Notes under the pieces: model-generated
What the model was told of the DNA's origin: nothing
Seen by the model: only the letters and a program-made list of their open reading frames with translations
Databases searched by the model: none
Shown: piece after piece, positions 1 to 61,564 of the stretch
Numbering within the stretch: position 1 is the first letter of the stretch
How the letters are laid out: the number at the start of each line of letters is the position of its first letter
Program-made: the position numbers and the translations under genes
Source: Erodium maritimum
Lineage: Eukaryota > Streptophyta > Magnoliopsida > Geraniales > Geraniaceae
Length of the DNA stretch: 64,000 bases
NCBI GenBank assembly: GCA_963921825.1
Contig: OY997593.1
Location: forward strand, 39,695,111 to 39,759,110
Reading direction: 5' to 3'

Positions 1-2043
1 GGCGACCTCGAGGCGTCGGATCTGAGCCAAGGGCGAGTCTTGGTTCTCGCCTGAATCACCGCCGCCACGACCTCAGGTCCGTCGTGGACCTGCCGCCGTC
101 CTCTGTCTCTCTCTCGTCGCCGTCGCACCTCACCTGCCACCGTGGAAGACCGCCGGAGCAACCTTTGCTCGCCGGCGACCCGTCCAGCTCAGGCCGACCT
201 CACTAGACCAGTTTGGGCTGGAAAGATCGGGCCTTGGGCCAGAACACGAGCTGGGCCGAGAAGGCCTTGGGCCCGTGGGAAGGATCGGGCCAGCCAGACT
301 AGAAGATGGGCCTTGGCCCATTGTGGACTCGGGCCTTGAGCCCAGTGGACTTCAAGACCGGGTCTGGACCAGGTTCGGGCTCGGATCCGGGTCATTCGGA
401 CTGTTAAGGAAACCGTTTTAAAAATCAGATTTAATTAACCGGTTTAATAAATTCAAGGTGAGACTTTGAACGGGAAATTCTTGGTTAAAGCAAGGGACCT
501 TTGGACTTTTATCGTTGTTTGATTGGACTTTTCTTTATCAATTCTAGACGGGACTTCGCCCGAGACCAAGGGCTTGGACCCGAGCTAGAAGAGCAAAGAT
601 CACGCCGGGACCCGAGTGAAGAACGGAGTAGTGACCATCGGGCTTCATCGAAGTGTTGAGAGGAAGACCTCGAGGTAGGGAAAGCCTTAACCTCTCGTTT
701 ACGATGCTTAGTATGCATGCTAGGTTAATAAAATTGGAAAGGTCCTAGAAATGCCTATAGGATGCGAATAACTAGCGTAATCGTCTTTCAATTACTAATA
801 ATCGGAATTGTCTAGTGGTGACCGATTAGGATGCCAATCACTAGTGTAATTCGCTTTCAATACTTGGGAATTGATTGTCTGGTAGAGGAGCCTTGGCAAA
901 GCCCTCGGATTAGTTGCGTGTTAGGATCACATGCTTGTTTGTTGGTTGCTTAGTGGATAGGCTAAAGAGTCTAATGGAACTAGTTGAATTGCATGTGTGT
1001 ATGCTCGTTGAAGGTTTTATGATTGGTTGTTTAAACTCGTACTTGATCGTTGATGGTATTCGAATGATTACTTGTTTTACTTTAATAGTTGCTTGGAGCA
1101 TCGAGTATGACTGGTTGTACCGAGCGGTGCAATCAGGTGATCGATGCCCCGGTGGTTCGAAACTGGTAAGTGAACGGTAAGTTGGGATGATGTGATTGAT
1201 GTGCTATGTTTATGTGATTCGTGTACTGCCTGTTGTGTGAATTGGTGATGTACGAGCTATGGTTGGTATCGAGTGGGTGGTTGTCTGAATTGGATCGTTC
1301 TGTGTTTCTGATTGAGTGCGTTATTCAATTATTAACTATTTATCATCTAATTGCCCAAGTGTGCGCTTCCTATGGGAGTATTGCCCTGGGTTCCCGAGGA
1401 TCTAAAATCCTTTGGAGACGTTTCTGAGACTTCCGATGATATGTGCCCTGAAGGGTGTTTCCGATAGTCTCAATGATATGCGTCTCCTCTGGATTGGAGG
1501 GAAAATCCGAGAGGACACATAAGATGTGGATCGGAGGGTGGTGACTTCATGTGCCACGGCATTGATCGGTTTATCTATTGCCTGTGATTGTTAAGAGCTA
1601 TATGTTAACTGTACTGATGAATTTACTCGTAATATTATGAACTACCTTGTTGACTGTGTTGGTGAATTGTGGATCTCGTGGACATTGCCGTTGATTCTTT
1701 GGAGTTTAAGGTTTACCTTGTTTTGTGCTTTCCCTACTGAGCGTAAGCTCACCCCTGTGAGTTCATTGTTGTGTTTACAGGCTTGATTGAGGAGTAGAGG
1801 CTCGGGAGCTTCTCGGTGTGGGTGTCAGTAGAGACTTCACTTTTATTTCTTTTGTTTAAGAACTGATTTTGTGGAGGTTTATTATTACACCCCTGGAGGG
1901 TTACTTTTATTTTACACTGATTTTTATGGATTGAGTTACTTATTGGAGTTTTCAGGAACTTATTATTGAATGGTCATCTCTTTTATTCTTGTATTACTAG
2001 TCATGCCTCGAGTCCGGGCAAGAACCGGATTTGGGGCGTGACA
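1..2043 (+). repeat. 5' LTR (partial; first ~571 bp outside window)
   Basis: This stretch aligns base for base with 8605-10647 and ends in GGGGCGTGACA, immediately before the primer-binding site. It includes a GC-rich segment with GGGCC-type words (200-340), a CGAGGTAGGGAAAG box at 671-684 that recurs in the unrelated-looking LTRs at 35301 and 60681, and the TGAGC/GCTCA hairpin at 1738-1751. Confidence 0.92.
1738..1751 (+). other. LTR hairpin TGAGC-GTAA-GCTCA
   Basis: A perfect 5-bp stem with loop GTAA, which as RNA is a GNRA tetraloop. The 3' LTR repeats it at 10342-10355. The other LTR family in the window has the same stem one pair longer (GTGAGC/GCTCAC) with different loops at 36703, 61979 and, on the minus strand, 25465. 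Confidence 0.6.
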
Positions 2044-2046
2044 ATT

Positions 2047-2059
2047 TGGAATCAGAGCC
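2047..2059 (+). other. Primer-binding site, initiator tRNA-Met type
   Basis: TGGAATCAGAGCC lies three bases after the 5' LTR and is a close match to the complement of the 3' end of plant initiator tRNA-Met (TGGTATCAGAGCC). It fixes the orientation of the element as plus. Confidence 0.85.
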
Positions 2060-2413
2060 TGGTTTCATTTGAAACAGGTGTCTTGTGAACTGATTTTCAA
2101 ACCTCGGACCGAAGTCAATTAGGTGGGTAGAGTTAGGGAGTCTGAGTCTTGAGTTGCTTTAAGAGTTGTCCTAAATGGAACCTTACACTACAATGTTTGC
2201 ATTACTTGATTGGTATCCTCTCCCTTATGGTCGGTGAAGCCGAATGGTTGAGATCGGAATTGGATTAACGGTCAATGACCGACCCGTTATGCATACATGG
2301 TAGGGTGAACCAACAGTTGGTGGTGGTGTTGCCCTTTGGCGGATTACTTCGAAAATTTTCAAGTTGTAGTTTGGTCCTGTTCAAGTTTTGACTTGTGATT
2401 GACCGTTGGTCTA

Positions 2414-2991
2414 GAGCATGAGTACTCCATGTGTATTGGTGTTGAGTGTTTTGGGTGGGGCACGAGAACCCCGTAACCCGTTGTATGAGAACTATGAGTG
2501 GGGTCGTCGAACCCGTGTCTTGACCTTTGGTGTTTGGGAGGCCATGAGAGCCTTGTTTGACTATTGAGTCTTGAGTGGCCATGAGAGCCCGTGTTATTAT
2601 TTGTGTTTGGGTGGCCATGAGAGCCCGTGCTATTAATTGTGTTTGGATGGCCATGAGAGTCCGTGTACCAAGGTTGGTGGTTGTGGCTGGCTTACGAGTT
2701 AGAGTCTCGGTAAGTTGCGAGCGTATGCTATTGTTGAGATTGGGACACGAGTATCCCCTATGCCCGCTGAGGTGGCGAAATTGGGACACGAGTATCCCCT
2801 ATGCCCGCTGAGGTGACGATTTTGGGACACGAGAATCCCGTAAGCCCGTAGAGGTGGCGAGTTTGGGGCACGAGTACCCCGTAATATTTTGGGAGCACGA
2901 GAACTCCGTTTATTGTTTGCGTTGTGTACTTTAGGAGCATGAGAACTCCCTTCTTGACTGTGTGATGTCTTTGGAAGAGCATGAGAACTCT
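2414..2991 (+). repeat. Array of covarying mini-hairpins with CAYGAG loops
   Basis: Part one (2414-2661) has GAG-CATGAGTA-CTC (2414), GGGG-CACGAGAA-CCCC (2457), AGGC-CATGAGA-GCCT (2539) and three GGC/GCC-type units at 36-bp steps (2577, 2613, 2649; the last with a G-U pair). Part two (2742-2991) has GGGA-CACGAGTA-TCCC (2742, 2783), GGGA-CACGAGAA-TCCC (2824), GGGG-CACGAGTA-CCCC (2865), GGAG-CACGAGAA-CTCC (2892), GGAG-CATGAGAA-CTCC (2934) and AGAG-CATGAGAA-CTCT (2976), mostly at 41-42 bp steps. The loop is conserved while three of the four stem pairs change on both arms together. The role is unknown. A leader RNA with repeated protein-binding loops is my inference. Confidence 0.8.
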
Positions 2992-3386
2992 GTGTACTTT
3001 TACCTTGTGAATTTGTGTTGATGTTGTCCCGCTTAAGCGGAGGGTTAAAGGGAAATACGGCTGGGTCATGCCGAATTTTCAGTAGAACTAAAACGTTTAC
3101 ACCATCACTGGTTGACTCAGAGGCGTCACTGTAGTTGAGCATGATGGTTCGATGTCCAGTTGTTACAATGAGGTTCGGGGACGCCTGAATCAGGTTGTGA
3201 CAACATGAGATCGACATGAAAAGGTTTGGGTAAAAGTTAAGAAATGGGAATTCATGGAAGGGAAGGAAAGGTTAAGGGTGATTATTGAATTGAATTGTAT
3301 TAAGTGCTAAAACCCCCCTTTGTGAAAGGATACCCGAGCGAGGGGCATGCCTGTTGCGTTGTGCCTTGTGTGGTGTGCTTGAGAAT

Positions 3387-3720
3387 GAATCCTCCTGTGG
3401 GAGTGGATTTCTTTGACTTGATTGAATCCTCCTGTGGGAGTTGGGGGTTGATTGCTAAATCGCTGGTTGTTGCTGTGTGACGCATAGAGATGCGAACTTG
3501 CGTGCTATTATATATGAGTATATATATAACTACTAAGCTTAAGAGCTGTAAAACCTTGGGTGACTTGTGAGACGCGCGTGGACGTCCTTGTACTTGATCG
3601 AACCTTTGTTTTGGTGTGAGACGCACGAGGTGCGGGTCTCTTGTTTACGTAAGTGTTACTTACGACTTTACGACTTACTTTTGATCCAAGTGGGATCCGG
3701 TAAAGACGCACGAGAACGTC
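3387..3720 (+). repeat. Second cluster of short hairpins
   Basis: CTCC-TGTG-GGAG occurs twice within a repeated phrase (near 3391 and 3427). CGCAT-AGAG-ATGCG is at 3481-3494, GACG-CGCGTGGA-CGTC at 3571-3586, a longer GAGAC...GTCTC stem with an inner GCAC-GAG-GTGC near 3618, and GACG-CACGAGAA-CGTC at 3705-3720. The last one has exactly the loop of the upstream array with a different, still perfectly paired stem. Confidence 0.6.
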
Positions 3721-5389
3721 ATGCGTGGGTGAATCGAACCGTTGGGTTAAACTGTGTTGTGAACCTATAGTTGCTAAAGGCAGTGAGCTGGCGAGATGTC
3801 CCACATTTTTATCCTGGAGAGTACCAAGAGCCGGCCAGTTGTGGGGCAGAGCCAGATACCAGCTATCGTTCTGGCAGGGGCAGTGAGCGCCCAGGGAGAT
3901 ACTTCCGCAGAGCACCAGAGTTTTGGGGATAGACCGGTAGGGTCATCACCTAGAGTTCCTCCAGTCGCAGAGCCGACTCAAGCGGCCCGATTGAGGAGGT
4001 GGTTCACGCAGTGTTAGATGCGCTCAACATGATAGTACAACGCCGACACAAGAGTCAGTGCCTACCGCCGACGCGGTCACTACCGAGATGCCAGGCCAGG
4101 TGGACGGTTACACGGCCCAGGCACTCAGAAGTCTTCTTCAGTTGAGTACACCAGTTTGATCCGGGAAGTTGGACCCCGAGGCAGTTGTATTATGGTTGGA
4201 GTGGAGTACCCACAACCTTAATACGTTTAGAGTATTCGGTTATTCGTTGGATATTATGTTCCGCGACCCCCCGACTGAGAGAGAAGCACAGTATTAGTGG
4301 CAGTGTGTGCAGACCAGATTTGGAAATGGCTTCCACCCGTTCAGCGGACTGTCCCTGGGACAGTATTTCCTTTGATCTAATCGAGATGACCGACACCGGC
4401 AGTTTTGGATCTGCATTGGAAAGGGATGACCATCTATGGGTATTAGGCGAGGTTCATGTCCCCGTATCGCTTCGCACCCGGGATGGTGCCGACCGAGAAG
4501 AGCCGTCGTAGGCATTTGAGAAGGGACTCAGTCCTCTTGGCACAGAGTGAGTCATTGTCTCAGAACCGTGGACGATTCAACACTAGTGGAGCAAACACTA
4601 GCGTTAGAAAGGCAGGTTGGGAAACCGCCAAGGCGCGGAAGACCAGGCCGAGGCCGAGAGGCTTCTTGAGGCCGTTAGAGAGCCGGAACCCGTGGAGGCA
4701 GGGAACCTCAGGATTCTTCCATTCACAGACCCAGTCCGGTGAGGCACGATGAGTTGGAGAAGTAGCGTCCGTTGGACCTGCCTCGGTGGCATGGGTTGCT
4801 CCTACGCAAACAGTTGGAACGTTTAGGCCAAGAAGGCAGTTGAGTGACGGATCGACGAACCGTCCCACAGAGCGATGCGAGAGTCGACAAGGGAATATGC
4901 TGGCATAGCAGTGAATTCTTTCACCATCAGGAGGAGGACCTCCGAGGTGGTGGGGCCGAGCGTATCTACTCACCGAGCCCGAGTGAGGACTTGATACCGA
5001 TCTTGAGATCGCGTAGAGTACTCGTTACCAATTACATTTTGGATTTCGTGTCAGCTGACACTTGAGCATTACACTAGGTGTATTGGTTCGTGGTGACGTA
5101 TCGATCGAGCGAGTTTAACACCGTTAAGCCCACCGGTACTTTCAACACATCGACTAAAGGTATGGTAGTACCGACTAACGTCAGTGGGAATTGGAAAGTG
5201 GAATAACAACTTAGTCAGATTGAAGGTTCTTTTCTTCTCTGAAAGTGCGGATCGAATTTTAAGAACCGAGTGTTGAAACAGCAAGCGTTCATCGAGCGCC
5301 ATCAGCGACGAATGCCGAACAGTGAAAGGCCGCAGCCTTGACCAGTAAACGGTCCGACCGGTCACCGGAGGTGACCGAGCAACGATAAG

Positions 5390-5431
5390 ATCAGAGTAGC
5401 GCAGCGGAAGCGTGGTGGGCCCATACCCACA
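5390..5431 (+). other. 5' half of initiator tRNA-Met embedded in the LTR element
   Basis: These 42 bases match the first ~43 bases of plant initiator tRNA-Met as I remember it. They cover the acceptor 5' strand, the D arm (GTAGCGCAGCGGAAGC) and the anticodon arm with CAT in GGGCCCATA. I count two differences: one substitution before the D stem and one base missing from the anticodon loop. Similarity stops sharply after the anticodon stem and no T arm follows, so this is not a working tRNA gene. The host element uses the same tRNA species as its primer, so copying of a tRNA half into the genome during reverse transcription is a natural explanation. Confidence 0.75.
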
Positions 5432-8020
5432 GTAGTCGTAATCTACAGTTTCTTCTAACCCCGCTACAAGACTTAAGTTAAAAGATTCGAACCGGGGAGG
5501 CGCTGTTGTTCAAAATCTTCGATTAACGAGCGAAGGTGACACAAGTGTGTGCCGTACGTAAGGAACTAAATGAAGGTGTATTTCTTACGTTATCCCCCGG
5601 AGGACTAAGCTTAACCATGAGGTTATGACCTAGAAGCGAGAGCACCTCGCGGTAAACACCAGCTACAGATAACTGAGGACGACTCCCACAAGCTTCAGGC
5701 CAGTAACAAGATGGCACCGAACGAGGAATTGTATAATAGGTCGGATTTTGTACCACGGGAGAGCACGGGAAAGATTAAGAGCTAACCGTTGTGGGTTTTA
5801 AATTGTCGATTAGCGAATGACGGAACCGCGTGAGTCTCTAAACTATTCAAGATTTCGAAGATCTCAGTACGTGTTGTTAACCCTTAAAGGGGCGACTTGG
5901 GTGGATTTGACTATAAGTTGGTGGATTGATAGCTCGTGAACGGTATAAAGGACACCGCCGGTCGGGATGACCTTTGGCCTTCGATCTGGGATCGTGTTTT
6001 GCCGTCGAGTGTAACTATCTTACGTTCAATGGTGATGTCTTGAAGGACGCCTACTTTCGACCAAGCACCAGTAAGGGGTTCTATTGGTCCGTGTTGTTGT
6101 ACGCCGTTCGTCCAATTAATGGTTGGTAGAGTTCATGGTGGTACTGAACCATGCACCGGGTTTGAGAACCATTGTCTCGTGTTATGATGATTCAGGTGAG
6201 ATGACTAGTGAAGTGGCTGATTAGATGTTGAGAACTAGTTTTGATGTCAAGAGAATTATCGCGAGTTGGATAACCTTTCCGTTTGATCACAATGAGATGT
6301 GGATAGCTTACCGCGAATTGTGGTTGTGGTACGTGATGTGTAACTGACCCGTACCAGGTTGAGGACCGTGTTCAAGTTTAACCGTTGTGACAATTGTGCG
6401 TGTTGTTGGCTGTGTGCGAGACACGTTTTTGCTTTATCCTTTACCCTGGGTGTGTGATGACCGGTTAATTGATGTGATTGCAGTTGGTGTTGGTTCGTTC
6501 GCTTATGTTTTATGAGTGTGTTGGAATCTTGAGTTGAGGAATGTGGTTACAAGTTCCGTTGGAAATTGGTTGTATGACGCACCCGTATGCCAAGCTTAGC
6601 ATGACAGAAGGTGTTGAGTAAGATATGTTTGAGGCTGGCCACTTTTCGACTTTATGCCGGTACGCGGTACCCGTTGCTTGGCGGAGGTATATCTACTTTT
6701 TTTTTGGGATGTGATGAAGCGAACGATTGTTCCAAACCCCGCAGTGTTTTTGAGGACCTTTGTTTGGATGATCACGTTTGGGAGTTGCTTGCTCGTCTTG
6801 AGTATGTGAGGTCGTGACGAGACGGGTTTGGAGTTCTAGTGAGAACTATTCGGGAGACGGTTACTAAAGAGAATTGAGGAGTCACACCTTCGGATGGCTC
6901 CGTCCATGTCCGATTTTCGGAGTTTCTGACGAGACACCCATACCGAAGGAAGATCCCGGTATGGCATGTCAGAACCGAAGTCGTTCTATCCGGTGTGAAA
7001 CCGGTACAGTTGAGGATCATGATGGGAATTATCTACATCGAAGTTGTTGATGACGGTCCGCCGTCTACACTAAAATTGGAATCTGATAGGAGTTTCCAAG
7101 ATCGTTTCTGGCATTCCTCAGTATCTGAGGTGGGTACGATTACCCCTTTTTGAGTTGCACCTATTGGTCCGCCGGATGGATGTTCCGAACCGGGCAATGA
7201 CTATGAGATCCTTTGTCTTGAGGTAGTGGTTGTTACGTTCTGCTTGTTCGGGTAATCGTTTGTGGTTGGTCTTAGCATGGCAAATATTGGATTTCTGGGT
7301 AAGATGCCCCTGTAAAGGTTACTAAGAAGGAAACTGAGTGGTTATGGCTACGTGTAATTCCCTACTTCAGCTCGCCTTACGAGATGTTTCGACGCGATGT
7401 CTATAACCGACGGGAGGTTCCGGTATAGAATATCCAGACCGACGTAGAGGATTCCAGTGCGATGTCTATACCAAGGTAGGATTCCGGTATAGGATGTCAT
7501 ACCGCCATCTGATAATCCTTAGCGTCTAAGTGTTCCTGGCAAGTTGAGTACATTGGTGGTTCTTGAGTTATGGGTTCATGCTGAAACTGCGAACCGTTGA
7601 GAAAGACTATTTCTCACCGCCAACTATGACTTGCGAGTAACTAGCTTGGTCTAGTGAAGCACGAATAGGCAAAGGTTGCGTAAATGCGGAAACGGGTTAA
7701 GACCGAGTAAAGCCGGCAGAAGAGCTACAAAGATGAAAGGCGCAGGCCTATTGAGTTTCATTACGGGTTCAGATATTTCTAAGAATAAGCCTGACGGAGG
7801 CCTAAGCGGATCGACAGCGACGAAGGCAAGTGGGCCCCGCAGTTTATCGTACGTTGAAGTCTTCAGACAGAACTAGAACCGTTGCCGGGCAGTTTCCTCC
7901 GTGTTTCCGAACTACGGAAGTACACCACGGCTCCCTCACAGGTGACTCGAAATCGAACGTTCCCTGAGATTTGGACAAGAGGAGAACGTTCATGTTAAAT
8001 TTCGAGGACGAAATTTCTTT

Positions 8021-8032
8021 AAGGGGGGTAGA
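8021..8032 (+). other. Polypurine tract
   Basis: AAGGGGGGTAGA lies one base before the TG start of the 3' LTR and follows the conserved TTTCGAGGACGAAATTTC motif. It is the expected plus-strand priming site. Confidence 0.85.
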
Positions 8033-8242
8033 TTGTAAAACCCGCTTCGTTTAAAGGTGTAGTAAAGTGCAAATTGAAACATCGAGGGGTGAAAGTGTAA
8101 CAATTAAAAATTCGAGAAGGAAAAATCAAAAAAAGAAGGGACAAAGTGGTGCTGGACTTTAGAGATGGACCAGACTTGGCCCATTTAGAGGCTCAGCCGG
8201 CCCATTTAAACTGATGCACTCGGCCTGGCCCAAAGGGCACGC

Positions 8243-8250
8243 TATAAGAG
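8243..8250 (+). promoter_or_regulatory. TATA-like box of the LTR promoter
   Basis: TATAAGAG is followed about 30 bases later by a CT-rich stretch (from about 8268) that suits a transcript start. The equivalent site of the 5' LTR lies outside the window. Confidence 0.5.
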
Positions 8251-10341
8251 GGAGCAAACCCTAGCTGTGGTTACTGTTCATCGTCCCTTCCCTCTTTCTC
8301 TCCTACGCGAAACCGAGCCAAGCTGCCGCCGCTCCTCCCGTCCCCGTTTTCTCGCCGTCCTCCCACCGCCGCGCAGCAACCACGCCCTCAAGCTCCTCTC
8401 CACCTCCATCAGTGCCCTCATCTCTGTCTACAAGCCGAGCAGGAGCGACCTCGAACCGGCGCCGGAGATCCGTCCGCTCGGATTCGTCCTCTTCGGGCGG
8501 ATTCGAGCCCTCTCCCTCCTGTCTTCTTCTTCTCCGGCCTCTCTCATCTCGTTTCCGAGCTTTCCCGAGCTCGATGCGTACGAGTTCGGTCGGAAACCCT
8601 CGCCGGCGACCTCGAGGCGTCGGATCTGAGCCAAGGGCGAGTCTTGGTTCTCGCCTGAATCACCGCCGCCACGACCTCAGGTCCGTCGTGGACCTGCCGC
8701 CGTCCTCCGTCTCTCTCTCGTCGCCGTCGCACCTCACCTGCCACCGTGGAAGACCGCCGGAGCAACCTTTGTTCGCCGGCGACCCGTCCAGCTCAGGCCG
8801 ACCTCACCAGACTAGTTTGGGCTGGACAGATCGGGCCTTGGGCCAGAACACGAGCTGGGCCGAGAAGGCCTTGGGCCCGTGGGAAGGATCAGGCCAGCCA
8901 GACCAGAAGACGGGCCCTGGCCCATTGTGGACTCGGGCCTTGAGCCCAGTGGACTTCAAGACCGGGTCTGGACCAGGTTCGGGCTCGGATCCGGGTCATT
9001 CGGACTGTTAAGGAAACCATTTTAAAAATCAGATTTAATTAACCGGTTTAATGAATTCAAGGTGAGACTTTGAACGGGAAATTCTTGGTTAAAGCAAGGG
9101 ACCTTTGGACTTTTATCGTTGTTTGATTGGACTTTTCTTTGTCAATTCTAGACGGGACTTCGCCCGAGACCAAGGGCTTGGACCCGAGCTAGAAGAGCAA
9201 AGATCACGCCGGGACCCGAGTGAAGAACGGAGTAGTGACCATCGGGCTTCATCGAAGTGTTGAGAGGAAGACCTCGAGGTAGGGAAAGCCTTAACCTCTC
9301 GTTTACGATGCTTAGTATGCATGCTAGGTTAATAAAATTGGAAAGGTCCTAGAAATGCCTATAGGATGCGAATAACTAGCGTAATCGTCTTTCAATTACT
9401 AATAATCGGAATTGTCTAGTGGTGACCGATTAGGATGCCAATCACTAGTGTAATTCGCTTTCAATACTTGGGAATTGATTGTCTGGTAGAGGAGCCTTGG
9501 CAAAGCCCTCGGATTAGTTGTGTGTTAGGATCACATGCTTGTTTGTTGGTTGCTTAGTGGATAGGCTAAAGAGTCTAATGGAACTAGTTGAATTGCATGT
9601 GTGTATGCTCGTTGAAGGTTTTATGATTGGTTGTTTAAACTCGTACTTGATCGTTGATGGTATTCGAATGATTACTTGTTTTACTTTAATAGTTGCTTGG
9701 AGCATCGAGTATGACTGGTTGTACCGAGCGGTGCAATCAGGTGATCGATGCCCCGGTGGTTCGAAACTGGTAAGTGAACGGTAAGTTGGGATGGTGTGAT
9801 TGATGTGCTATGTTTATGTGATTCGTGTACTGCCTGTTGTGTGAATTGGTGATGTACGAGCTATGGTTGGTATCGAGTGGGTGGTTGTCTGAATTGGATC
9901 GTTCTGTGTTTCTGATTGAGTGCGTTATTCAATTATTAACTATTTATCATCTAATTGCCCAAGTGTGCGCTTCCTATGGGAGTATTGCCCTGGGTTCCCG
10001 AGGATCTAAAATCCCTTGGAGACGTTTCTGAGACTTCCGATGATATGTGCCCTGAAGGGTGTTTCCGATAGTCTCAATGATATGCGTCTCCTCTGGATTG
10101 GAGGGAAAATCCGAGAGGACACATAAGATGTGGATCGGAGGGTGGTGACTTCATGTGCCACGGCATTGATCGGTTTATCTATTGCCTGTGATTGTTAAGA
10201 GCTATATGTTAACTGTACTGATGAATTTACTCGTAATATTATGAACTACCTTGTTGACTGTGTTGGTGAATTGTGGATCTCGTGGACATTGTCGTTGATT
10301 CTTTGGAGTTTAAGGTTTACCTTGTTTTGTGCTTTCCCTAC

Positions 10342-10355
10342 TGAGCGTAAGCTCA
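10342..10355 (+). other. LTR hairpin TGAGC-GTAA-GCTCA, 3' copy
   Basis: Identical to 1738-1751 at the expected offset of 8604 bases. Confidence 0.6.
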
Positions 10356-10647
10356 CCCTTGTGAGTTCATTGTTGTGTTTACAGGCTTGATTGAGGAGTA
10401 GAGGCTCGGGAGCTTCTCGATGTGGGTGTCAGTAGAGACTTCACTTTTATTTCTTTTGTTTAAGAACTGATTTTGTGGAGGTTTATTATTACACCCCTGG
10501 AGGGTTACTTTTATTTTACACTGATTTTTATGGATTGAGTTACTTATTGGAGTTTTCAGGAACTTATTATTGAATGGTCATCTCTTTTATTCTTGTATTA
10601 CTAGTCATGCCTCGAGTCCGAGCAAGAACCGGATTTGGAGCGTGACA

Positions 10648-10985
10648 GGTTCAATTGAAGCTGAATTTTAAACTTTGCAGAATTTTGATGTGTCTGAGCA
10701 TAGAATTTTCCACACTTTAAATTATGGTGGACCATGTCTGAGCATAGAATTTTTTCAAGCATGGTGGTATTCACCATACGTTTGGGTATAGCGTGTAATG
10801 ACAATTTTTACATGCATGCCTGAACTAATGCTTTGTTAATGCCAAATGCATTGTAATGATAATTTACCCTCCATGATTACATGAGTTTATGTGAATCTTT
10901 TGGTCCATAATGTTTATATTCCTAAATCTTTAATTGTGTTATGTATTGCAGGTAATCCAAATGAATGTTGAGCAGTCCAGACATC
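10648..10985. other. Unique-looking spacer between LTR element and LINE A
   Basis: The stretch is AT-rich and I see no gene. A phrase around TCTGAGCATAGAATTTT occurs twice (near 10692 and 10735). It continues, interrupted by LINE A, at 17765. Confidence 0.4.
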
Positions 10986-20540: not shown

Positions 20541-21592
20541 TATGAGGCATATTTTGTGAAACTTCCCTTTCATTACCCTAAATTTTTATTTATGTCATTT
20601 TAGTACCTATCTTTAACTTTCCATCTGATTTTCATCCGAAACAGGTAAAATAACAATATTACCCCTCACTAACCATCATATTTTGAAATTCATTCCATTG
20701 ATTTTATAAAATTATTTTTATTCTATACAAATCACTTTTTTATAAGAATCATATTCTAATTTTTTAAAAAAAACATTTTTAAATTCAGTTTTTATTTAAA
20801 AATTATTTTTAATTTTAGAAAAATATATAAATCAGATTTTATTTTTCAAAATATATAAAGATCATATTCAAATATATATATGTATAAGATTTTATTTTAA
20901 AAAGATATAAATCATATTAACATTTAACTTTAATTATAATTTTTTAACCTTTTAACGAAAAATGGAGAAAGAGGGTGAGAGAGAGGTTGTTGTCGTCAGA
21001 GTTTCGTCGGGGGCTTCAGCGCCGGTGGGGTTTTCGGCTTCTGGTATAGGTCCTCTTGGGCGTGGATTCAAGGACGTCATTGTTGAGGGTTCTTTCTCGC
21101 ATTAGAGAGCTCTGATCCTAGTGGGAGAGGAAGTCTCAAAAGCCTTTTTGTGCAATTTTCCATATGATGAGAGTAAATTTGTCCTAATTAATTTGACTAT
21201 TTTCCTCATGTTTTTACCTTAATTGTTCCTTAATTTTTTTAGGTTTTTTTTTAAATTGTCTTAAAGTTTCTTAATCGTCCATATTTTCTGGTACTTCGCA
21301 ATATATCTAATATTTCTCTCATTTTGCAGGCCTCCGAAAAATAAATATAATAGCGTAAGAACGATGAAAATCGGGCACAAATAGAGCGAGAATTACCATA
21401 ATGGTGAAAGGTACCACAGTTGAGAAGCCTTATTTGATTTGGACACGTGGCGCAATCTAGGGCTTAGAATCTGCTTAATATGGATGCTGACCTCGAGTAC
21501 ACATAGTCTTGCCCACACCCAATTATTTGGCCATTTACTTCTCCTCTTCATTACAACACACTCGACTTCGAAGGAATGGATTCATTTTTTTA
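20541..21592. other. Probable truncated Mutator-like remnant in AT-rich DNA
   Basis: The phrase at 20565-20640 (ATTACCCTAAA, ATTTTAGTACC, TTAACTTTCC) matches, inverted, the phrase at 39160-39225. Both look like one end of a long-TIR Mutator-like family. At 20960-21110 a GC-richer segment starting with GGAGAAAGAGGGTGAGAGAG resembles the first exon of a captured transcript. I could not find a matching opposite end or a target duplication. Confidence 0.35.
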
Positions 21593-23176
21593 GGGAAAAT
21601 TTCATTTTACCACTCTTACAAATATTTAATTTCAGTTTGATACTTTGACATAATTTTTTTTCATTTTAATACCCTAACCAAACTTTTAATTTCACTTTCA
21701 TACTCAGCCGGGTAAAATGTCCAAAATACCCCTAACTATTACTCAAATTTTCAAACTCATGCCATTGGTTCAGAATTTGAAAATAAGTGAAATGACAATA
21801 ATACCCTTCATTGTTTAGGGTGTTAAAATGAAAATTTCACTACTTTTAAAATAAAATCAGTTTTTTTTTTTAAATTCAATTTTTATTTAAGAAAATTATT
21901 TTTATTTTCAAAAAATCAGATTTTAATTTTAAAAATACATAAAAAATCAAATTTTATTTTTAAAAATTAAGTTTTTATTAAAAAAATTCCATTTTTTATA
22001 CATAAATCATTTTTTTATTTTTAATTCATATCTTTATTAAATTCCATTTCATTTTTATTTTTATTCATATCCTTTTTATCCAAACTCACATTCTCTCCTC
22101 ATTCGTCTCTCTCCTCTTCATCTTCCTCTTTACCCAAATTCACATTTCATGTTCCTTGCCTTCATCCTTGTCCTTGTTCAACATGATTCTTGGGTATAAT
22201 TGATTCATGGGTCTTAAATCGAACCCTTCATCCTTGTCCACAAAGACACAGACCCATTTTGCTGGGTATGATTTGGTCCACACAAATACAACAGAGGGAA
22301 AAGAGCTCTGAGAAAGAGAGACAAATCTCGCAGAAAAAAAATCCCCAGTACTGTAGATCCATCCTCACCTTCGATTTCCACCTCCTGGTTCTGAAACTCA
22401 ACCCCAATCATCGCCTTGGAGTTGCTATCGAACTCGTTCCTTACCCATTACATTTCTCCTATTCCTCGACTCAGATGCTGAAATAGGTCTGAACTCGAGC
22501 TGCGTGAATGGCGGGGCTGTGAGAAGATGAACCAGTGAAGAAGAACGGACAAAGAGTCCAAGGTTCCCCCGCCCCCGCCGCAGGTCCCGAACTCACGCCG
22601 TGGTCTTCTCGACGCCTGGTCTCCTGAATGTAGATGAACAAGAGATGAAATTTCTACAGATCTGTAGATTAGATTGGATCTATAAAAGTAATTAACTATA
22701 TAAGTAGATTAGATCTGAAAGAATAAAAAAAGAATAAAAAATTGATTTTGAAATAAAATATGATTTTTATGTATTTTAAAAAATAAATTCTATTTTTATG
22801 TATATTTAAAAATAAAAACTGATTTTTATGTATTTTTTAAATTAAAAACAGAATTTTTGAAAATTAAAATAATTTTCATAAATAAAAACTGAATTTATAA
22901 AAAAAAAACTGATTTTATTTTAAAAGTAGTGAAATTTTCATTTTAACACCCTAAACAATGAAGGGTATTATTGTCATTTCACTTATTTTCAAATTCTGAA
23001 CCAATGACATGAGTTTGAAAATTTAAGTAATAATTAGGGGTATTTTGGACATTTTACCCGGTTGGGTATGAAAGTGAAATTAAAAGTTTGGTTAGGGTAT
23101 GAAACTGATAAAAATTTCTGTCAGGGTATCAAACTGAAATTAAATGTTTGTCAGGGTGGTAAAATGAAAATTTCCC
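21593..23176. mobile_element. Mutator-like element with long terminal inverted repeats, non-autonomous
   Basis: The ends are GGGAAAATTTCATTTTACCA (21593) and its complement (ending 23176). The inverted repeats match closely for at least 280 bp (21593-21870 versus 22910-23176) and more loosely for a further 150 bp of AT-rich sequence. TTTTTTTA flanks both sides (21585-21592 and 23177-23184), fitting an 8-9 bp duplication in a T-run. There is no transposase. The core (22080-22680) is much less AT-rich than the arms and reads like an inserted transcript piece with CT-rich and coding-like stretches, as in Pack-MULEs. The long TIR points to the Mutator group. A hAT origin is less likely. Confidence 0.75.
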
Positions 23177-23189
23177 TTTTTTTACAAAG

Positions 23190-31860: not shown

Positions 31861-34800
31861 AACATGAAAGTCCTCTCATGAAATATGAGAAGATAGAATT
31901 CTCCCAGAAGTGGCATAGTTTGAGGGAGCTTGTTGTCAAATTAAAGCCTCATTATGTTATGTTACAGGAGGTGAAGTGGAGGGAGATTGACTACTCTCTT
32001 CTACATTGTTCTGGTCTTAATGGTTGGTGGAATTGTGAATTAATCCCGACAGTAAGGAGTGTCGGTGGAGTAATAATCTTGTGGAAAACGAACTCTCTTT
32101 TAGTGGACTCCTTTGACGTTATAGAAACTGCTCTGGTTTGGCAAGGAAGGTGTGTTTCTACCAATTTACCTATTTCTTTTATCAATGTGTATGCTCCTTG
32201 TTCAATAGCTGGTAGAAAGGCTCTTTGGGGTCTATTATTAGCTTTTATCCCTTCTCTCTCGTATCACCTGGTCATTGGGGGTGATTTCAATGTAGTTTTA
32301 TTGGACTCAAAGAGAAGGAATAATGTTTCTTATAGGTCAAATGTGATGTCTTTCCGAGAATTTATTTCTCGGGCTGGGATCATTGATTTACCTCTTGTAG
32401 GATCTTGCTTTACTTAGTATGTACATGCCTCTAAGGTTTTAAGGCTTCATCGTATTCTCGTCTCAGTAGATTATTTGGAAGTGTTTGGCCCTCTGAAACT
32501 TTCTAGTTACCCAATGGAACTTTCGGACCACAATCCCATTATGATCGATGAGGAGAATGTTAATTGGGGTCGGAAGCCTATCAAGTTCCTTAATGCATGG
32601 ATTAAACATACTGCTTTCTTTCATACTATGGCTAGGTTGTGGAAATTTTATCCATCTTATGAATATGCCAGTTTTACTCTTTGGTCCAAGATCAAGGCAT
32701 TGCGACATGAACTTCAAATACGGAACATGGAGGTGTTTGGTATTGCTGAAAAGGAATTCGAGAAGCTCAGATCGGATATTGATGAGGTAGACAAGCTTCA
32801 GGAGCTTGAAGATCTATCAGATGTTGAGAATGTTGATCGTTCCTGGTTTAAAGCCCTGCTTATATTTAAGAGGAAGTTGCTTGCAAAAATCTGGAGGCAG
32901 AAGCCTATAGTCTCTTGGTTTAAAGCATGCCACCGTTTTTCTCGCTATTTCCATAGGGTAGTGAACTTTCGAGCTCATAGGAATTGAGTTTCTCAGTTCT
33001 GTACTCCCCAAGGCATCGTTGATCTCCCGGATGAAATGAAAGAGCCAAGGGGTGCTCATTTTGAGAGTCAGTTTACTACTCCTCTTGGGATCATTTTACT
33101 TGCCTCTCATACTTTTCTCCACTATGTCTTTCTCCCAAGCTCAGGATTTGGAGTCAAGCTTCTCATTGGAAGAGATCAAATCTTCAATTGATGCTTGTGA
33201 CAATGACAAATCGCCGGGCGTAGATGGGTTTTCGCTGAAGTTTTATAAAATGACTTGAAGTATTCTATAAGGAGATTTGAAGCGCTGCTTGGACGAGTCC
33301 CATGCCTATGGTGATATGGGTAAGTGGTTGAATGCTACCTTTATTACTTTGATTCCTAAGCATGATCAAGCCGAATTTCTGAATGACTTTAGATCGATTA
33401 GCTTAATCTCTGGGCCTTATAAGATTCTGACCAAATTGTTAGCATCTCGTTTAAAAGTTGTGATCTCTGATCTAATAAGCTATACCTTGTGTGAATTTAT
33501 GGTTGGCAGGAAACTCTTGGATGGTGTTCTTATAGAATCTAAGATCATCTAGTTAATCAAAAGTCTAAAATTGAGTCTGTGTTGTTGAAACTAGACTTTG
33601 AGAAGGCCTATGATAAGCTGCATTGGGAGTATATTGATGAAGTATTATCTCATATGAACTTTAATTATCGTTGGATACCTTGATGCAGACCCTTTTCCGA
33701 GCTCATATGTCATTTTTGGTCAATGGTGTTCCAGGAAGAGATTTTCAGACGCTTAATTGGATTCGTCTGGGCTGCACCCTGTCTCCATTTTTGTTCTTAA
33801 TTTTTGTTGAAGGCCTCCACAGAGTCCTAGAATTTGGCAAAGAACATGGCCTCTTCCGTGATGTTGAAGTGGGTAATGGGGTATCAGTCTCGCATCTCCA
33901 ATTTGCAGACGTGAGTTCCGGGGGACTCAGGGCAACTTTCTGACCAATTTGGGAAAGGTTGACTTTTTGTTTGAAAAGTCAACCGAGCGACGTTTTGGAC
34001 CGTTCGAGGTCCGTTATGGACCTAAACAGCTTAGTCGTCGTCACAGCGGTCTTAGTTGAGCCGTTTCCTTGTAGCCCGTGAAGTTTCGTAATTTCTTGGA
34101 AAAAGTGCCCGTTCAGGGCTCGAGACGGCCGAATTTCGCGAATCTGATTGAAAAATATCTACAAAGATATTTTTCTAACTCTTGGGACCCACAAGACACT
34201 TGTCACAAAAGTGGTGGTAGTTGGTTTTTAAATTAAAGGAAAGGAAAGGATGAGTGTTAGTTTGGTAATTAAGTGTTAGTTGTGTTTTTTGAACAAAACA
34301 AAAGGGAGAAGACATGGAGTGTCGGCTATAGTTGGAAAAAAGGGTAGAATTAGAGAGAGAAAGTGGAGAGAGGAAAGTGAAGGAGAAAATGGAGAAAAAG
34401 AGAAGAAAAGGTTGGGGCTTTTTGATTTCCCGACGATCCAACCGACGGATCGTCTCAACGATCGAAGAATCGAGTTCCCGTCATCATTACCTACAGTGAG
34501 CATCTATCCAATTTTCGTTTTGGTACATTTAAAAGTTAGGGTTTGTGTTTAAATGGGTTAAATATGGATGAGTCGAGGTGTTGGGTTCGTTGGGAACGTT
34601 TTGGAGCGAAAAGGATCAATTTCAGGTGACCGGAGGCTCGGGGGAGCTCCGGCCACCGTGTATGGTGGCTGACGGAGTTGGGGGGAGGGTGGTTGGCCAG
34701 AGCTAGGGCTGGCCACCATGGTGGTGAACGGCCCAAAACTAGCCCTAGTCACCCACGGCCAAGGATGGCCGGGTGGTTCCCACATGCTCGGGTATCGGGT

Positions 34801-35365
34801 TTTCGTGTTCGGGTGGTTTAGGACGTTCCCCAAGTCGTTAATCCACACCCGGATCGAAATTTGGAATTAAATTGTAAAAGTTGTAATTGGCGGGTTTAGA
34901 AACTTTAAACACGAATTAAATTGCTCGGAAGTCGGAAATCGATTCCGTCGATTGCGTTGGAACCCTTGAATTATTCTAAGACCGTAGAAACAAAAACGGG
35001 AATTTTCGGAGCCCCGGAAGGACGTTTTCCAATCCCGGGCAGATTCGTTGGGTCGAGCGAAACGGGCCTTTCCGGGTCCATTATCGACAATGTCGAGTAA
35101 TTGGGAAGTTTGGGAGTGATCGACATTGTCGGGGTTACATTTGGGCGTCAAGTTTATTAAAATTCAGTTTATGCCTGCAAGCTTAAAAGTGTTTTAAATT
35201 GTGTTCTTATTAGATCGTGCCACCGACAGAGGAAAGGGAAAGCTAGGCGATTGATCGTGATCACACCGGGGCTTGGTTGTGAGCTTTTGGGGAAAGCATA
35301 CGAGGTAGGGAAAAGTAGCCGGATCTCGGCCCTGACTAGGGAAAGTTAACAGTAGAAATGCATGT

Positions 35366-35543
35366 GACACTTGGGTGTCGTGGGTTAAGTAAGTTTATCA
35401 AATGATAGAAAGGCAAGCGACACCGGGTGGTGTCGTATGATACGGGAACATATCGAACAATAGAAATGCATGTGACACTTAGTAGTGTCGTAGGAGCAGT
35501 GAACTTATCGATATTAGAATTACTAGAGGCATTTGGTTATGCC
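35366..35543 (+). repeat. Hairpins GACAC.../GTGTC and GGCAT/ATGCC in solo LTR a
   Basis: GACAC-TTGG-GTGTC is at 35366-35379, CGACACC-GGGT-GGTGTCG at 35418-35435, GACACT-TAGT-AGTGTC at 35474-35489 and GGCAT-TTGGTT-ATGCC at 35528-35543. The sixth stem pair switches from C-G to T-A on both arms together. Confidence 0.7.
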
Positions 35544-35569
35544 CGGAGGTTGATTGTTTAGTTTGTGTC

Positions 35570-36240
35570 TTGGGTGGCCATGAGTGCCCGTGGGGTTGTT
35601 GAGCCCGTGTTTTTACTGTTGGTGTGTCTTGGGTGGCCATGAGTGCCCGTGGGGTTGTTGAGCCCGTGTTTTTACTGTTGGTGTGTCTTGGGTGGCCATG
35701 AGTGGCCGTGAGGTTGTTGAGCCCGTGTTTTACTGTTGGTGTGTCTTGGGTGGCCATGAGTGCCCGTGGGGTCGTTGAGCCCGTGTTTTTACTGTTGGTG
35801 TGTCTTGGGTGGCCATGAGTGCCCGTGGGGCTGTTGAGCCCGTGTTTTTACCTTTGGTGTGTCTTGGGTAACCATGAGTGCCCGTGGGGTTGTTGAGCCC
35901 GTGTTTTACTATTGGTGTGTCTTGGGTGGCCATGAGTACCCGTGGGGTTGTTGAGCCCGTGTCTTTACTGTTGGTGCCTCTTTGGTGGCCATGAGTGCCC
36001 GTGGGGTTGTTGAACCCGTGTTTTTACTGTTGGTGTGTCTTGGGTGGCCATGAGTGCCCGTGGGGTTGTTGAGCCCGAGTCTTTACTGTTGGTGTGTCTT
36101 GGGTGGCCTTGAGTGCCTGTGGGGTTGTTGAACCCGTGTCTTTACTGTTGGTGTCTTGGGTGGCCATGAGTGCCCGTGGGGTTGTTGAACCCGTGTTTTA
36201 CCGTTGGTGTCTTGGGTGGCCATGAGTGCTTGTGGAGTGT
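35570..36240 (+). repeat. Tandem array, about 12 units of 56-60 bp, in solo LTR a
   Basis: Each unit reads TTGGGTGGCCATGAGTGCCC, GTGGGGTTGTTGAGCCCGTG and then T-rich spacer ACTGTTGGTGTGTC. It contains hairpin GGC-CATGAGT-GCC and hairpin GGGT-TGTTGA-GCCC. Variants GGGC-TGTTGA-GCCC (35828) and GGGT-TGTTGA-ACCC (36004) keep the second stem. The first stem is broken in a few units (for example near 35868 and 35930). Confidence 0.85.
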
Positions 36241-36329
36241 TAAACCGGTGTTGTTGCTGCTGTTGAACTTTGCTTGTGATTGTGATTGTGGTTACCTGGG
36301 GTTGGTGAGTGACAGGTCGACAGCCTGAT

Positions 36330-36432
36330 CCGACTTTGTGTCGGGAAAAGTGCGACAGGTCGACCTCCTGATCCAACCGTCGTGTTGGGAAAAGTGCGAC
36401 AGGTCGACAGCCTGATCCAACTGTCGTGTTGG
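36330..36432 (+). repeat. Hairpin triplet CCGAC/GTCGG in solo LTR a
   Basis: CCGAC-TTTGT-GTCGG (36330-36344), CCAAC-CGTCGT-GTTGG (36373-36388) and CCAAC-TGTCGT-GTTGG (36417-36432) lie in units of about 44 bp that also carry ACAGGTCGAC. The middle pair changes G-C to A-T on both arms. Confidence 0.72.
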
Positions 36433-36702
36433 GAAAAGGGCAGGGGTACTGAGCAGCTGGAGTGCGATCCTTTGTGATCTTGGGTGTTGCATGGTTATCT
36501 TTCGTGTCCTTGGAGGAAGTCGTAATCGTTTTGTCGGGTCTGCATTACGTGTCCGAGTGTTGAGTCGGTTGAGTAAAGTAACAGTTGTGTGTCAGTCGCG
36601 TTACTTGAGTTTGGGAATAGCAGTCCCCGGTGTTTGGGGTTGTTGTTGTTGTTTCCGGCATGTTCTGCTAAGTATGCCGTAGTCAGTCTGGTATCCGTGG
36701 TG

Positions 36703-36718
36703 GTGAGCGAACGCTCAC
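36703..36718 (+). other. LTR hairpin GTGAGC-GAAC-GCTCAC
   Basis: A perfect 6-bp stem about 240 bp before the LTR end. It is followed by CTAGCTGCTTTTCCTACAGG, which looks like a plant 3' splice site. Confidence 0.65.
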
Positions 36719-44631: not shown

Positions 44632-45718
44632 GAGGAGAAATCTAATAGAAACCCCTCTTATCCTAAAAAATGTGTGAACCAATCCTAGTCATACACTATT
44701 AAGATCCAACATTCACCATAATGCCACACCATCACCCTAATCCCATCATAAACTCACGCCACTTTCTTCCTTTCTCACACAAGCAAGGGCATAATTGTAA
44801 TAGCATGATGTCATGTGCACAAGTGTCCATTTTTTCTTCAACAATTCACTAGTTTAATCATTCCCGCTTCGTTTCAACTCCGATGAGCTTCAAAGTTGCA
44901 CTAATATTTTTTGTTTTCCAAGGGCTTTAAATCAAGGTCAGTCATGAATATATTTTGAAGCACGGATATAAAAAGTTATATTGGGGTGATAAAAATAATT
45001 TTCAATGTTGATAAATTTTCACTAATAATTGTTTTATATCAAGGAATCTAACTAGTGCTAAATGTTGATAAAAAAAACATGTACTGAGGTGATAAAAAAC
45101 GAGTTCAAATTTGATAATAAGTGTGATAAACCATAGTTTAGTGTTGATAAAAAAACATGTGACGGGGCGATAAAACACATGTAATTTAGTGATAAACATA
45201 GTGTTTAGTGTTGATAAAACTAGTGTTTAGTGTTCATAAAAAAACATGTGAAGAGGTGATACAAATCATGTTCAGTTTTGAAAAATCAGGTGATAAAACT
45301 AGTGTTCGGTGTTGATAAAACCAGTGTAAAGTGTTGATAAAATTAGTGTAAAGTGTTGATAAAAATTACCGAGATATAATTTTTTTTTTAAATCAGTCCC
45401 AAAATAATTTTTTATTTCGTGCTTCAAAATATATTCATGACTGATCTTGATAGAAAGCCCTTGAAAAAACAAAAATATTGGAGCAAGTTTAAAGCCAATC
45501 GGATTTCAAACGAAGCGGGAAAAATTAAATTTGTCAATTGGTAAAAAAAATGATAGTTTTACCAAAAAGCCCCTACAACTTACCAAAAAAGTGCTATTTT
45601 TTTAGTCAACAAGTCAACAACTCAATTGCATCTCATCCATCCATTATTAAATTGGATGGCTTGGATTGGTTCATACGATTTTTACGTTAAGAGGTGATTT
45701 CTATTTGATTTCTTCTTT
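44632..45718. mobile_element. Mutator-like foldback element with minisatellite core
   Basis: GAAACTATA flanks both ends (44623-44631 and 45719-45727), a perfect 9-bp duplication as expected for Mutator-like elements. The outer arms (GAGGAGAAATCTAATAGAAA against the complement of TTTCTATTTGATTTCTTCTT) and inner arms (44880-45000 against 45385-45530) are imperfect inverted repeats over most of 350 bp. The middle is a tandem array. There is no coding frame and no transposase. Confidence 0.82.
45000..45370 (+). repeat. Minisatellite of GTGTTGATAAAA units
   Basis: About 13 imperfect units of 20-35 bp around TTTAGTGTTGATAAAAC and CATGTGA.GAGGTGATAAA. Two types alternate at first and the array ends in four uniform AGTGTTGATAAAACTAGTGT-like units. 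Confidence 0.75.
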
Positions 45719-60950: not shown

Positions 60951-60974
60951 TATGCCGGAGGTTGTTGTGTTTTA

Positions 60975-61330
60975 TTATTGTTGAGTTTTGGGTGGCCTTG
61001 AGAGCCCGTGTTATTATTGTTGAGTTTTGGGTTGCCTTGAGAGCCCGTGTTATTATTGTTGAGTTTTGTGTGGCTTTGAGAGCCCGTGTTATTATTATTG
61101 AGTTTTGGGTGGACTTGAGAGCCCGTGTTATTATTGTTGAGTTTTGGGTGGCCTTGAGAGCCCATGTTCTTATTGTTGGGTTTTGGGTGGCGTTGAGAGC
61201 CCATGTTATTATTGTTGAGTTTTGGGTGGCCTTGAGAGCCCGTGTTCTTATTGTTGGGTTTTGGGTGGCCTTGAGAGCCCGTGTTATTATTATTGAGTTT
61301 TAGGTGGCCATGAGAGCCCGTGTTGTCTTT
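60975..61330 (+). repeat. Tandem array, about nine units of 39-40 bp, in solo LTR b
   Basis: The unit is TTGAGTTTTGGGTGGCCTTG followed by AGAGCCCGTGTTATTATTG. Each holds GGC-NTTGAGA-GCC. It is the counterpart of the 59-bp array in copy a but with a different unit length. Two longer units of the copy-a type follow (61340-61470). Confidence 0.85.
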
Positions 61331-61564
61331 TTGGTGTTTTGGGCGGCCGTGAGTGCACGTGGGGTTGTGAACCCGTACTTTACCGTTGGAGTCTTGGGTG
61401 GCCATGAGGGCCCGTAGGGTTGTTGAACCCGTGTTTTGTTGTTGGTGTCTTGGTGGCCTTGAGTGTCTGTGGAGTTCAGACTGGTGTCGTTACCGTCTGT
61501 TGAACTTTGTTTGTGATTGTGTTTGGTTACTTGATCATGGTGGAGGTTGTGTGGTGTAGCTAGC

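What the first reader, a model, noticed from the sequence alone, without database searches (positions are those of the whole stretch)
2414..2991. Array of mini-hairpins whose arms change together around a fixed CAYGAG loop
At least ten hairpins share the loop CA(C/T)GAG(A/T)A or its 7-base form, while the four-base stem varies as GGGA/TCCC, GGGG/CCCC, GGAG/CTCC, AGAG/CTCT and AGGC/GCCT. Three of four stem positions show paired substitutions, and one unit uses a G-U pair. Spacing is near-regular (36 bp, then 41-42 bp). Ordinary tandem repeats drift independently at each base. Paired change argues for selection on a folded RNA, perhaps a repeated protein-binding loop for packaging or translation. 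I know of no described plant LTR element with such an array. The structure is read directly. The function is inference.
Basis: partly seen in the sequence, partly recalled or inferred. Interest (0 to 1): 0.88.

Follow-up and report, generated by a model that had tools for sequence, protein, structure and literature searches.

The report
Repeated mini-hairpins in plant retrotransposon leader
A plant jumping element carries, just behind its start, a row of tiny hairpins whose loop stays the same while both sides of the stem change together, which looks like a repeated docking site on its RNA, although the function and even the strand are unproven.

Summary
Element A is an LTR retrotransposon: partial 5' LTR 1-2043, PBS-like site 2047, PPT-like tract 8021, 3' LTR 8034-10647. 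Its leader holds 13 CAYGAG hairpin units. Nine have an 8-nt CAYGAGWA loop, eight of them with a perfect 4-bp stem. Three of four pairs change on both sides; 97.2% of cells pair against 83.3% with shuffled 3' arms (0/500). The only other CAYGAGNA in the internal region (3709) also has a perfect, quite different stem. Spacers of the last three units are no more alike than shuffled ones, yet their stems change only in pairs. The LTRs are 99.0% identical and no Pfam domain was found in 25 sense ORFs, so A looks young and non-autonomous.

Against a simple RNA reading: the sense strand folds no better than shuffles (z +1.3), the antisense does (z -4.2), and the 36 stem cells hold no G-U pair. Related arrays in two other LTRs match only the 2427-2691 part and show no covariation.

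I favour a repeated protein-binding loop on the element's RNA, perhaps for Gag packaging. Template-switch maintenance, antisense structure and DNA sites remain open. No plant genome was available for a family-wide test.

The parts
1..2043 (+). 5' LTR of element A, cut by the window start, ending ...GGGGCGTGACA
   Evidence: sequence; 99.0% identical to the 3' LTR over 2042 sites, 19 transitions and 1 transversion
2047..2059 (+). primer-binding-site-like TGGAATCAGAGCC; one mismatch to the initiator-Met tRNA complement (tRNA sequence recalled)
   Evidence: sequence
2414..2427 (+). unit 1: GAG-CATGAGTA-CTC (3 bp; next pair A-C)
2457..2472 (+). unit 2: GGGG-CACGAGAA-CCCC
2539..2553 (+). unit 3: AGGC-CATGAGA-GCCT (7-nt loop)
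2577..2589 (+). unit 4: GGC-CATGAGA-GCC (3 bp)
2613..2625 (+). unit 5: GGC-CATGAGA-GCC (3 bp)
2649..2661 (+). unit 6: GGC-CATGAGA-GTC (3 bp, one G-U)
2742..2757 (+). unit 7: GGGA-CACGAGTA-TCCC
2783..2798 (+). unit 8: GGGA-CACGAGTA-TCCC
2824..2839 (+). unit 9: GGGA-CACGAGAA-TCCC
2865..2880 (+). unit 10: GGGG-CACGAGTA-CCCC
2892..2907 (+). unit 11: GGAG-CACGAGAA-CTCC
2934..2949 (+). unit 12: GGAG-CATGAGAA-CTCC
2976..2991 (+). unit 13: AGAG-CATGAGAA-CTCT
3705..3720 (+). outlying unit: GACG-CACGAGAA-CGTC, the only other CAYGAGNA in the internal region
   Evidence: pair-aware model 16.8 bits, next non-training match 10.8; sequence-only model 5.2 bits, loop part only, among chance matches
2044..8033 (+). 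internal region of element A, no protein family found
   Evidence: 25 of 25 sense stop-to-stop ORFs of 50 aa or more without a Pfam match at E 5
8021..8030 (+). polypurine-tract-like AAGGGGGGTA before the 3' LTR
   Evidence: sequence
8034..10647 (+). 3' LTR of element A (TGTAAAACCC...GTGACA), TATA-like TATAAG at 8243
35572..36240 (+). related array (58-59-bp units) inside LTR B; its DNA matches to element A lie within 2427-2691
60990..61470 (+). related array (39-bp units) inside solo LTR C; its DNA matches to element A lie within 2427-2691

Best explanation
The array is a set of repeated cis-acting hairpins on the genomic RNA of a young, probably non-autonomous LTR retrotransposon (LARD-like). 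Each unit is a 4-bp clamp that presents the octaloop CAYGAGWA. Only pairing matters in the clamp, so its letters drift in pairs, while the loop is held. The most likely use is multivalent binding of a protein to the RNA, first of all the nucleocapsid part of a Gag supplied by another element, which would get this non-coding RNA packaged. Shown: loop constancy, paired stem change, conservation of hairpin over spacer, an outlying unit with an independent stem, young LTRs, no protein family found. Inferred: that RNA is the acting form, that the sense strand acts, that a protein binds, and that it is Gag.
For: Covariation and controls. Hairpin density. Pattern count. Spacers of 2896/2938/2980 differ at 20 and 17 of 26 positions ungapped and, aligned with gaps, are no more alike than shuffled ones (60/500 and 227/500), while their stems differ by 0 and by one paired change and the loop by 1 and 0. 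Internal region: 9 of 10 CAYGAGNA sites have a perfect 4-bp stem and the tenth 3 bp, against 0 of 9 elsewhere in the window, one of the nine being in array B. The 3709 unit lies outside the array; base rate of such a stem 0.5-0.6%; 16.8 bits with pairs against 5.2 without. LTR identity 99.0%. No Pfam match. Analogy: HBV packaging stem-loops share an RGAG loop motif (PMC7612645, abstract and passages).
Against: Sense RNA folds no better than shuffles (z +1.31; 17 of 20 shuffles as stable); unit pair probabilities in 100-nt context are 0.00-0.54. The antisense strand folds better. No G-U among the 36 stem cells of the 8-nt class. B and C arrays: no excess of paired change, and their DNA match to A ends at 2691, before the block 2742-2991 that carries most of the covariation. 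Stems elsewhere in the B and C LTRs: no excess of compensatory change. YGAG enrichment in other loops of element A is marginal after removing duplicates (15 versus 9.3, 48/1000; gone with loops of 4-12). With only the five 8-nt types the permutation test is weak (4/120; 8/120 when whole stems are counted with G-U allowed). Only one copy of element A was available, and no Gag.
Confidence: 0.4

Rival explanations
1. No function: a short inverted-repeat unit spread by tandem duplication, and its arms were kept complementary by template-switch mutation (one arm copied from the other), not by selection.
For: Template switching can create and repair perfect stems and multi-base compensatory changes (PMC8794818, abstract and outline). 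The pairs here are strictly Watson-Crick (35 of 36, no G-U, one A-C). The array is embedded in ordinary 36-bp and 41-bp tandem repeats.
Against: No Watson-Crick fifth pair in 9 of the 10 eight-nt-loop units, three of these being T-G; the tenth, 2417, mismatches at pair 4. Spacers of the last three units are no more alike than shuffled ones while loop and geometry are kept, which the mutation mechanism alone does not explain.
Confidence: 0.28
2. The acting hairpin is on the antisense strand: an antisense transcript or minus-strand cDNA, with a longer stem that includes a constant U-G and a shorter CTCR-type loop.
For: Antisense fold z -4.23 against +1.31 for sense, 20 shuffles each. All 14 isolated units are more stable on the antisense strand, and unit 2417 becomes fully paired.
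Against: No transcript data were available. PBS-, PPT- and TATA-like signals point to sense transcription. In the B and C units the fourth pair of the first stem is T-G in 10 of 11 distinct rows of each alignment and that of the second stem in 6 of 11, which is a pair only on the sense strand. The z difference may be partly due to G-U pairing in G+T-rich shuffles (my reading).
Confidence: 0.13
3. A DNA-level array of binding sites for a dimeric protein, an enhancer like the tandem repeats of U3 in Tnt1.
For: Tandem repeats with a role in transcription are known in U3 of retroviruses and were found in Tnt1 (PMC3601003, passages). A 41-42-bp period is close to four helical turns.
Against: Half-sites vary as GGGG, GGGA, GGAG, AGAG and GACG but nearly always in pairs, which half-site recognition does not require. 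In A the array lies downstream of the LTR. Other spacings (27, 36, 44) do not fit a helical phase.
Confidence: 0.1
4. The leader hairpins act on translation or nuclear export of the element RNA rather than on packaging.
For: A structured leader recruits export factors in cauliflower mosaic virus (PMC12786077, passages). The array sits behind the PBS, where a leader would be.
Against: No protein family was found in the element, so translation would be of little use to it now.
Confidence: 0.08

Closest known systems
LARD elements (large retrotransposon derivatives, such as Sukkula)
   Same: LTRs around a core domain that encodes no protein, mobility assumed by trans-complementation; [quoted passage not shown]
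   Different: No loop-constant hairpin array appears in the passages read; the rest of that literature was not read.
Dispersed packaging signals of HBV and ssRNA viruses
   Same: Several short stem-loops with a common loop motif, RGAG in HBV (PMC7612645, abstract and passages).
   Different: Here the units are tandem, the motif is YGAG within an octaloop, and no capsid binding is shown; the likeness may be accidental.
Tandem repeats in LTRs and untranslated regions of plant retrotransposons (Tnt1 U3 repeats, PMC3601003 passages; Ogre/Tat 3' UTR repeats, recalled)
   Same: Tandem repetition in non-coding parts of plant LTR elements.
   Different: Those are repeats of sequence; here pairing rather than sequence is kept in the stem.
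Tekay/Del-like chromovirus LTR elements
   Same: Long LTRs ending in GGGGCGTGACA and an iMet-type PBS (recalled features).
   Different: No gag or pol domain was found, so the lineage is not established.

Membership tests
LARD | two LTRs with PBS and PPT around a long internal domain | tested here: met
   5' LTR cut by the window edge; PBS and PPT by eye
LARD | no protein-coding domain inside | tested here: met
   25 of 25 sense ORFs of 50 aa or more without Pfam match at E 5; the 32 antisense ORFs and shorter ORFs were not scanned
LARD | recent mobility despite no coding | tested here: inconclusive
   LTR identity 99.0%, K2P 0.0099 shows a young insertion; whether it was already non-coding then is inference
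LARD | conserved internal domain across many copies | not testable with these tools
   no whole genome held
LARD | conserved RNA secondary structure | tested here: inconclusive
   array covariation yes; sense-strand stability no
Repeated packaging-signal hairpins | common loop motif with variable stems at several sites | tested here: met
Repeated packaging-signal hairpins | binding by the cognate capsid or Gag protein | not testable with these tools
   no Gag found in element A, no binding data
Known Rfam RNA family | match to a covariance model | tested here: not met
   0 matches at E 1 in 1-10700, 0 at gathering in 64 kb
Neutral tandem repeat | core and spacer diverge alike, arms change independently | tested here: not met
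Tekay/Del chromovirus | gag-pol of the clade with a chromodomain integrase | tested here: not met
   no domain found in 25 sense ORFs; a lineage is suggested by LTR ends only, recalled

The most novel reading that the evidence does not exclude
A loop-coded docking array (fixed YGAG loop on free-drifting 4-bp clamps) is a cis-signal by which a non-coding plant LTR element captures the Gag of its relatives; its older 36-bp part is shared with the LTRs of a distantly related family, and its covarying octaloop block grew in element A.
Probability: 0.17. Interest if true: 0.82.

Novelty: new variant of a known kind. Interest (0 to 1): 0.54.

Why it matters
How plant LTR retrotransposons, and above all their non-coding hitch-hikers, mark their RNA for packaging is, to my knowledge, poorly known; the review passages seen here say that direct evidence for decapping as a source of packaging substrates in plants is lacking, and describe a dual-promoter solution in barley BARE (PMC12786077, passages). 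A short defined hairpin in 13 or more copies would be a directly testable binding site.

Tried and rejected
Hairpin richness as a general selected trait of these LTRs: perfect stems of 5 bp or more are enriched in the first halves of LTR B (30 versus 10.3) and C (23 versus 9.2) and in 3006-5000 of element A (21 versus 9.7), not in the 3' LTR of A (18 versus 14.7) nor in five control stretches. But stems of B mapped on C show no compensatory excess (5 of 73 changed cells against 6.4% in the control; the other five settings are not significant either), so I do not claim it.

YGAG as a dispersed loop code across element A: first count 23 versus 11.9. After removing the 5' LTR duplicate and nested hairpins 15 versus 9.3 (48/1000), and nothing with loops of 4-12 (16 versus 15.4). 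Left as marginal.

B and C arrays as further covariation evidence: two stem readings on each of two alignments; one paired change (unit 2652 of A), reached by 95/500 shuffles, otherwise none. Three units were left out of those alignments (2543, 36221, 61458), and the units were picked by motif or register.

Relatives elsewhere: the GTDB pattern scan gave 80 stretches, which may be the listing's limit, each with one match and all in records titled as bacterial or archaeal; I take them for chance in GC-rich genomes, untested. IMG/VR gave 5, and the LTR-PBS pattern gave 0. None of these loci was read. Rfam gave nothing. Six array strings searched as text hit 4 veterinary papers, by GGGTGGCCATGAG only (listing only, primers presumed). 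Nine further answered paper searches listed no such array in titles and abstract beginnings.

A self-complementary kissing loop was considered and dropped, because CACGAG is not self-complementary. Coding repeats were dropped, because periods of 41 and 59 are not multiples of three.

Mended on checking: the sequence-only model had been run with filters on; run with filters off it lists the 3709 loop weakly. The BLAST printout had been cut; the full count shows that the match to B and C covers 2427-2691 only. For that I lowered the best explanation from 0.42 to 0.40, the novel case from 0.20 to 0.17 and the interest from 0.55 to 0.54, and raised the template-switch rival from 0.27 to 0.28.

Full report
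What is there. The window reads by eye as plant DNA with LINE, MULE-like and LTR-element sequence (not tested further). No whole genome is held for it. Element A spans the window start to 10647: 5' LTR cut by the window edge, ending at 2043; PBS-like TGGAATCAGAGCC at 2047-2059; PPT-like AAGGGGGGTA at 8021-8030; 3' LTR 8034-10647 with TATAAG at 8243. The two LTR copies are 99.0% identical over 2042 sites (19 transitions, 1 transversion; K2P 0.0099, about 0.4-0.7 million years at two assumed rates). All 25 sense stop-to-stop ORFs of 50 aa or more overlapping the internal region lack a Pfam match at E 5; the 32 antisense ORFs were not scanned. So A looks like a young, non-autonomous, LARD-like element, and its array should be close to the state in which it last moved.

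The hairpins. There are 13 CAYGAG units between 2414 and 2991. Nine have an 8-nt loop CAYGAGWA, with arms GGGG/CCCC (two), GGGA/TCCC (three), GGAG/CTCC (two), AGAG/CTCT (one) and AGAG/CTCC (one, a mismatch at the outer pair). Unit 2543 has AGGC/GCCT around CATGAGA. Units 2580, 2616 and 2652 have only 3 bp in that register. Distances between neighbours are 44, 82, 37, 36, 36, 94, 41, 41, 41, 27, 42, 42.

More than chance. Perfect stems of 4 bp or more with loops of 4-8 number 17 against 5.8+-2.2 in 60 dinucleotide shuffles. Longer stems of 5 bp or more are not enriched in the array (0 versus 1.8), so its signature is the 4-bp clamp. GGNNCAYGAGWANNCC is found 7 times, all in the array, against 0.05 expected. 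On the nine-unit alignment 97.2% of 36 cells pair versus 83.3% when 3' arms are dealt anew (0/500), 8 cells change on both sides versus 2.7 (0/500), and slid partners reach at most 66.7%. The number of pairs with a change on both sides (3) is not itself unusual (63/500). Among 285 placements of a 4-bp stem the claimed one is best. Tandem units are not independent, so I also counted each distinct stem type once and permuted the 3' arms exhaustively: cells paired as often as observed in 4/120 (five 8-nt types), 4/720 (with 2543), 8/40320 (with the 7-nt types of A) and 8/362880 (with 3709) permutations; counting whole stems with G-U allowed gives 8/120, 8/720, 48/40320 and 48/362880.

An independent unit. 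Of 19 CAYGAGNA sites on both strands of the window, 10 lie in the internal region of A. Nine of these have a perfect 4-bp stem and one a 3-bp stem; of the 9 elsewhere, one of them in array B, none has a stem of 3 bp or more. The tenth internal site, at 3709, is 0.7 kb outside the array and has GACG/CGTC, a stem unlike any in the array; the base rate of such a stem is 26/5012 in 3006-8033 (this site included) and 324/53285 in 10700-64000. A covariance model built from the nine array units finds it at 16.8 bits (E 0.053), with the next non-training match at 10.8 bits. The model without pairs misses it with filters on and with filters off lists only its loop part at 5.2 bits (E 3.5) among chance matches.

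Hairpin kept, spacer lost. Between 2896, 2938 and 2980 the spacers differ at 20 and 17 of 26 positions ungapped, while the stems differ by none and by one paired change, and the loop by one and none. Aligned with gaps these spacers are no more alike than shuffled ones (60/500 and 227/500 as good). The 41-bp units are younger copies: 2746, 2787 and 2828 differ at 3 and 6 of 25 spacer positions with no stem change, and 2828 to 2869 shows one paired stem change with 6 of the 25 preceding spacer bases changed.

Related arrays. BLAST of the whole internal region of A against LTRs B and C gives 20 matches, all within 2427-2691: 71% over 270 columns with C (E 1e-32), 86% over 56 columns with B (E 3e-10). 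The 3' LTR of A gives no match with them at E 0.01, only six shared 12-mers at five places with C, three of these places colinear (9275, 9590, 9702 with 60681, 60735, 60943), and two overlapping 12-mers at one place with B, against none with the reverse complements. So the shared part is the 36-bp block with mostly 7-nt loops and 3-bp stems; the block 2742-2991, which carries most of the covariation, has no match in B or C. It lies behind the PBS in A and inside the LTR in B and C. C is a solo LTR, 59181-62272, with the target duplication GAGCA. In the 25 B, C and A units aligned, picked by motif or register with three units left out, TGAG is invariant; stems vary little and show no excess of paired change in either reading.

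What speaks against a simple sense-RNA story. The 601-nt sense strand folds at z +1.31, the antisense at z -4.23, 20 shuffles each. Some of this is probably composition, since G+T-rich sense shuffles pair freely through G-U, but it means that sense stability is not evidence. All 14 isolated units are more stable on the antisense strand, and in 100-nt context the sense stems form with probability 0.00-0.54 and the antisense stems with 0.00-0.98. No G-U pair is seen in the 36 cells. These points leave antisense structure and DNA-level template switching (PMC8794818, abstract and outline) as real rivals. The constancy of the 4-bp length (no Watson-Crick fifth pair in 9 of 10 units, three of them T-G; 2417 has T-A beyond its mismatch) and the lost spacers are what make me prefer selection.

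Mechanism. The anatomy, a fixed non-palindromic loop on clamps whose letters do not matter, repeated in the leader of a non-coding but young element, fits a repeated protein-binding loop. The nearest working analogue seen in print is the set of HBV packaging stem-loops with a common RGAG loop (PMC7612645, abstract and passages). Gag binding in trans is the most economical use for an element without proteins, but it is inference, and no Gag was available to test.

Novelty. Tandem repeats in LTRs and conserved structure in LARDs are known (PMC3601003 passages; PMC7215508 passages). A loop-constant, stem-covarying array was not seen in ten answered paper searches, which show titles and abstract beginnings and do not cover most subscription journals. 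I rate it a new variant of a known kind.

Noticed in passing
33912-36960 and 59181-62272: Two related LTR copies (78% identical in the aligned columns), about 3 kb, with many short perfect hairpins (30 versus 10.3 and 23 versus 9.2 expected in their first halves) but no compensatory excess between them.
   Followed up: partly
35305-36739 and 60685-62015; 675-1780 in the LTR of A: LTRs of both families carry CGAG|GTAGGGAA and, downstream, an ACAG|G preceded by a GAGC..GCTCACCCCT motif; by eye these look like conserved intron ends, and in B and C the array would lie inside that intron.
   Followed up: no
36703-36718 and 61979-61994: Hairpin GTGAGCG-AA-CGCTCAC in B against GTGAGCA-AA-TGCTCAC in C just before the ACAG: one paired change.
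   Followed up: no
3479-3720: A series of GACGC-led small hairpins (3479, 3571, 3620, 3705), of which 3705 has the array's loop.
   Followed up: partly
21592-23177: Inverted repeat with 376-nt arms, 87% complementary, 834 nt apart: a possible foldback element.
   Followed up: no
44832-45550: Inverted repeat with 167-nt arms, 78% complementary, around an interior with repeated GTGTTGATAAAA.
   Followed up: no
2000-3000, 35000-37000, 61000-62000: Strong G over C and T over A bias on the sense strand of the leader and LTR regions.
   Followed up: no
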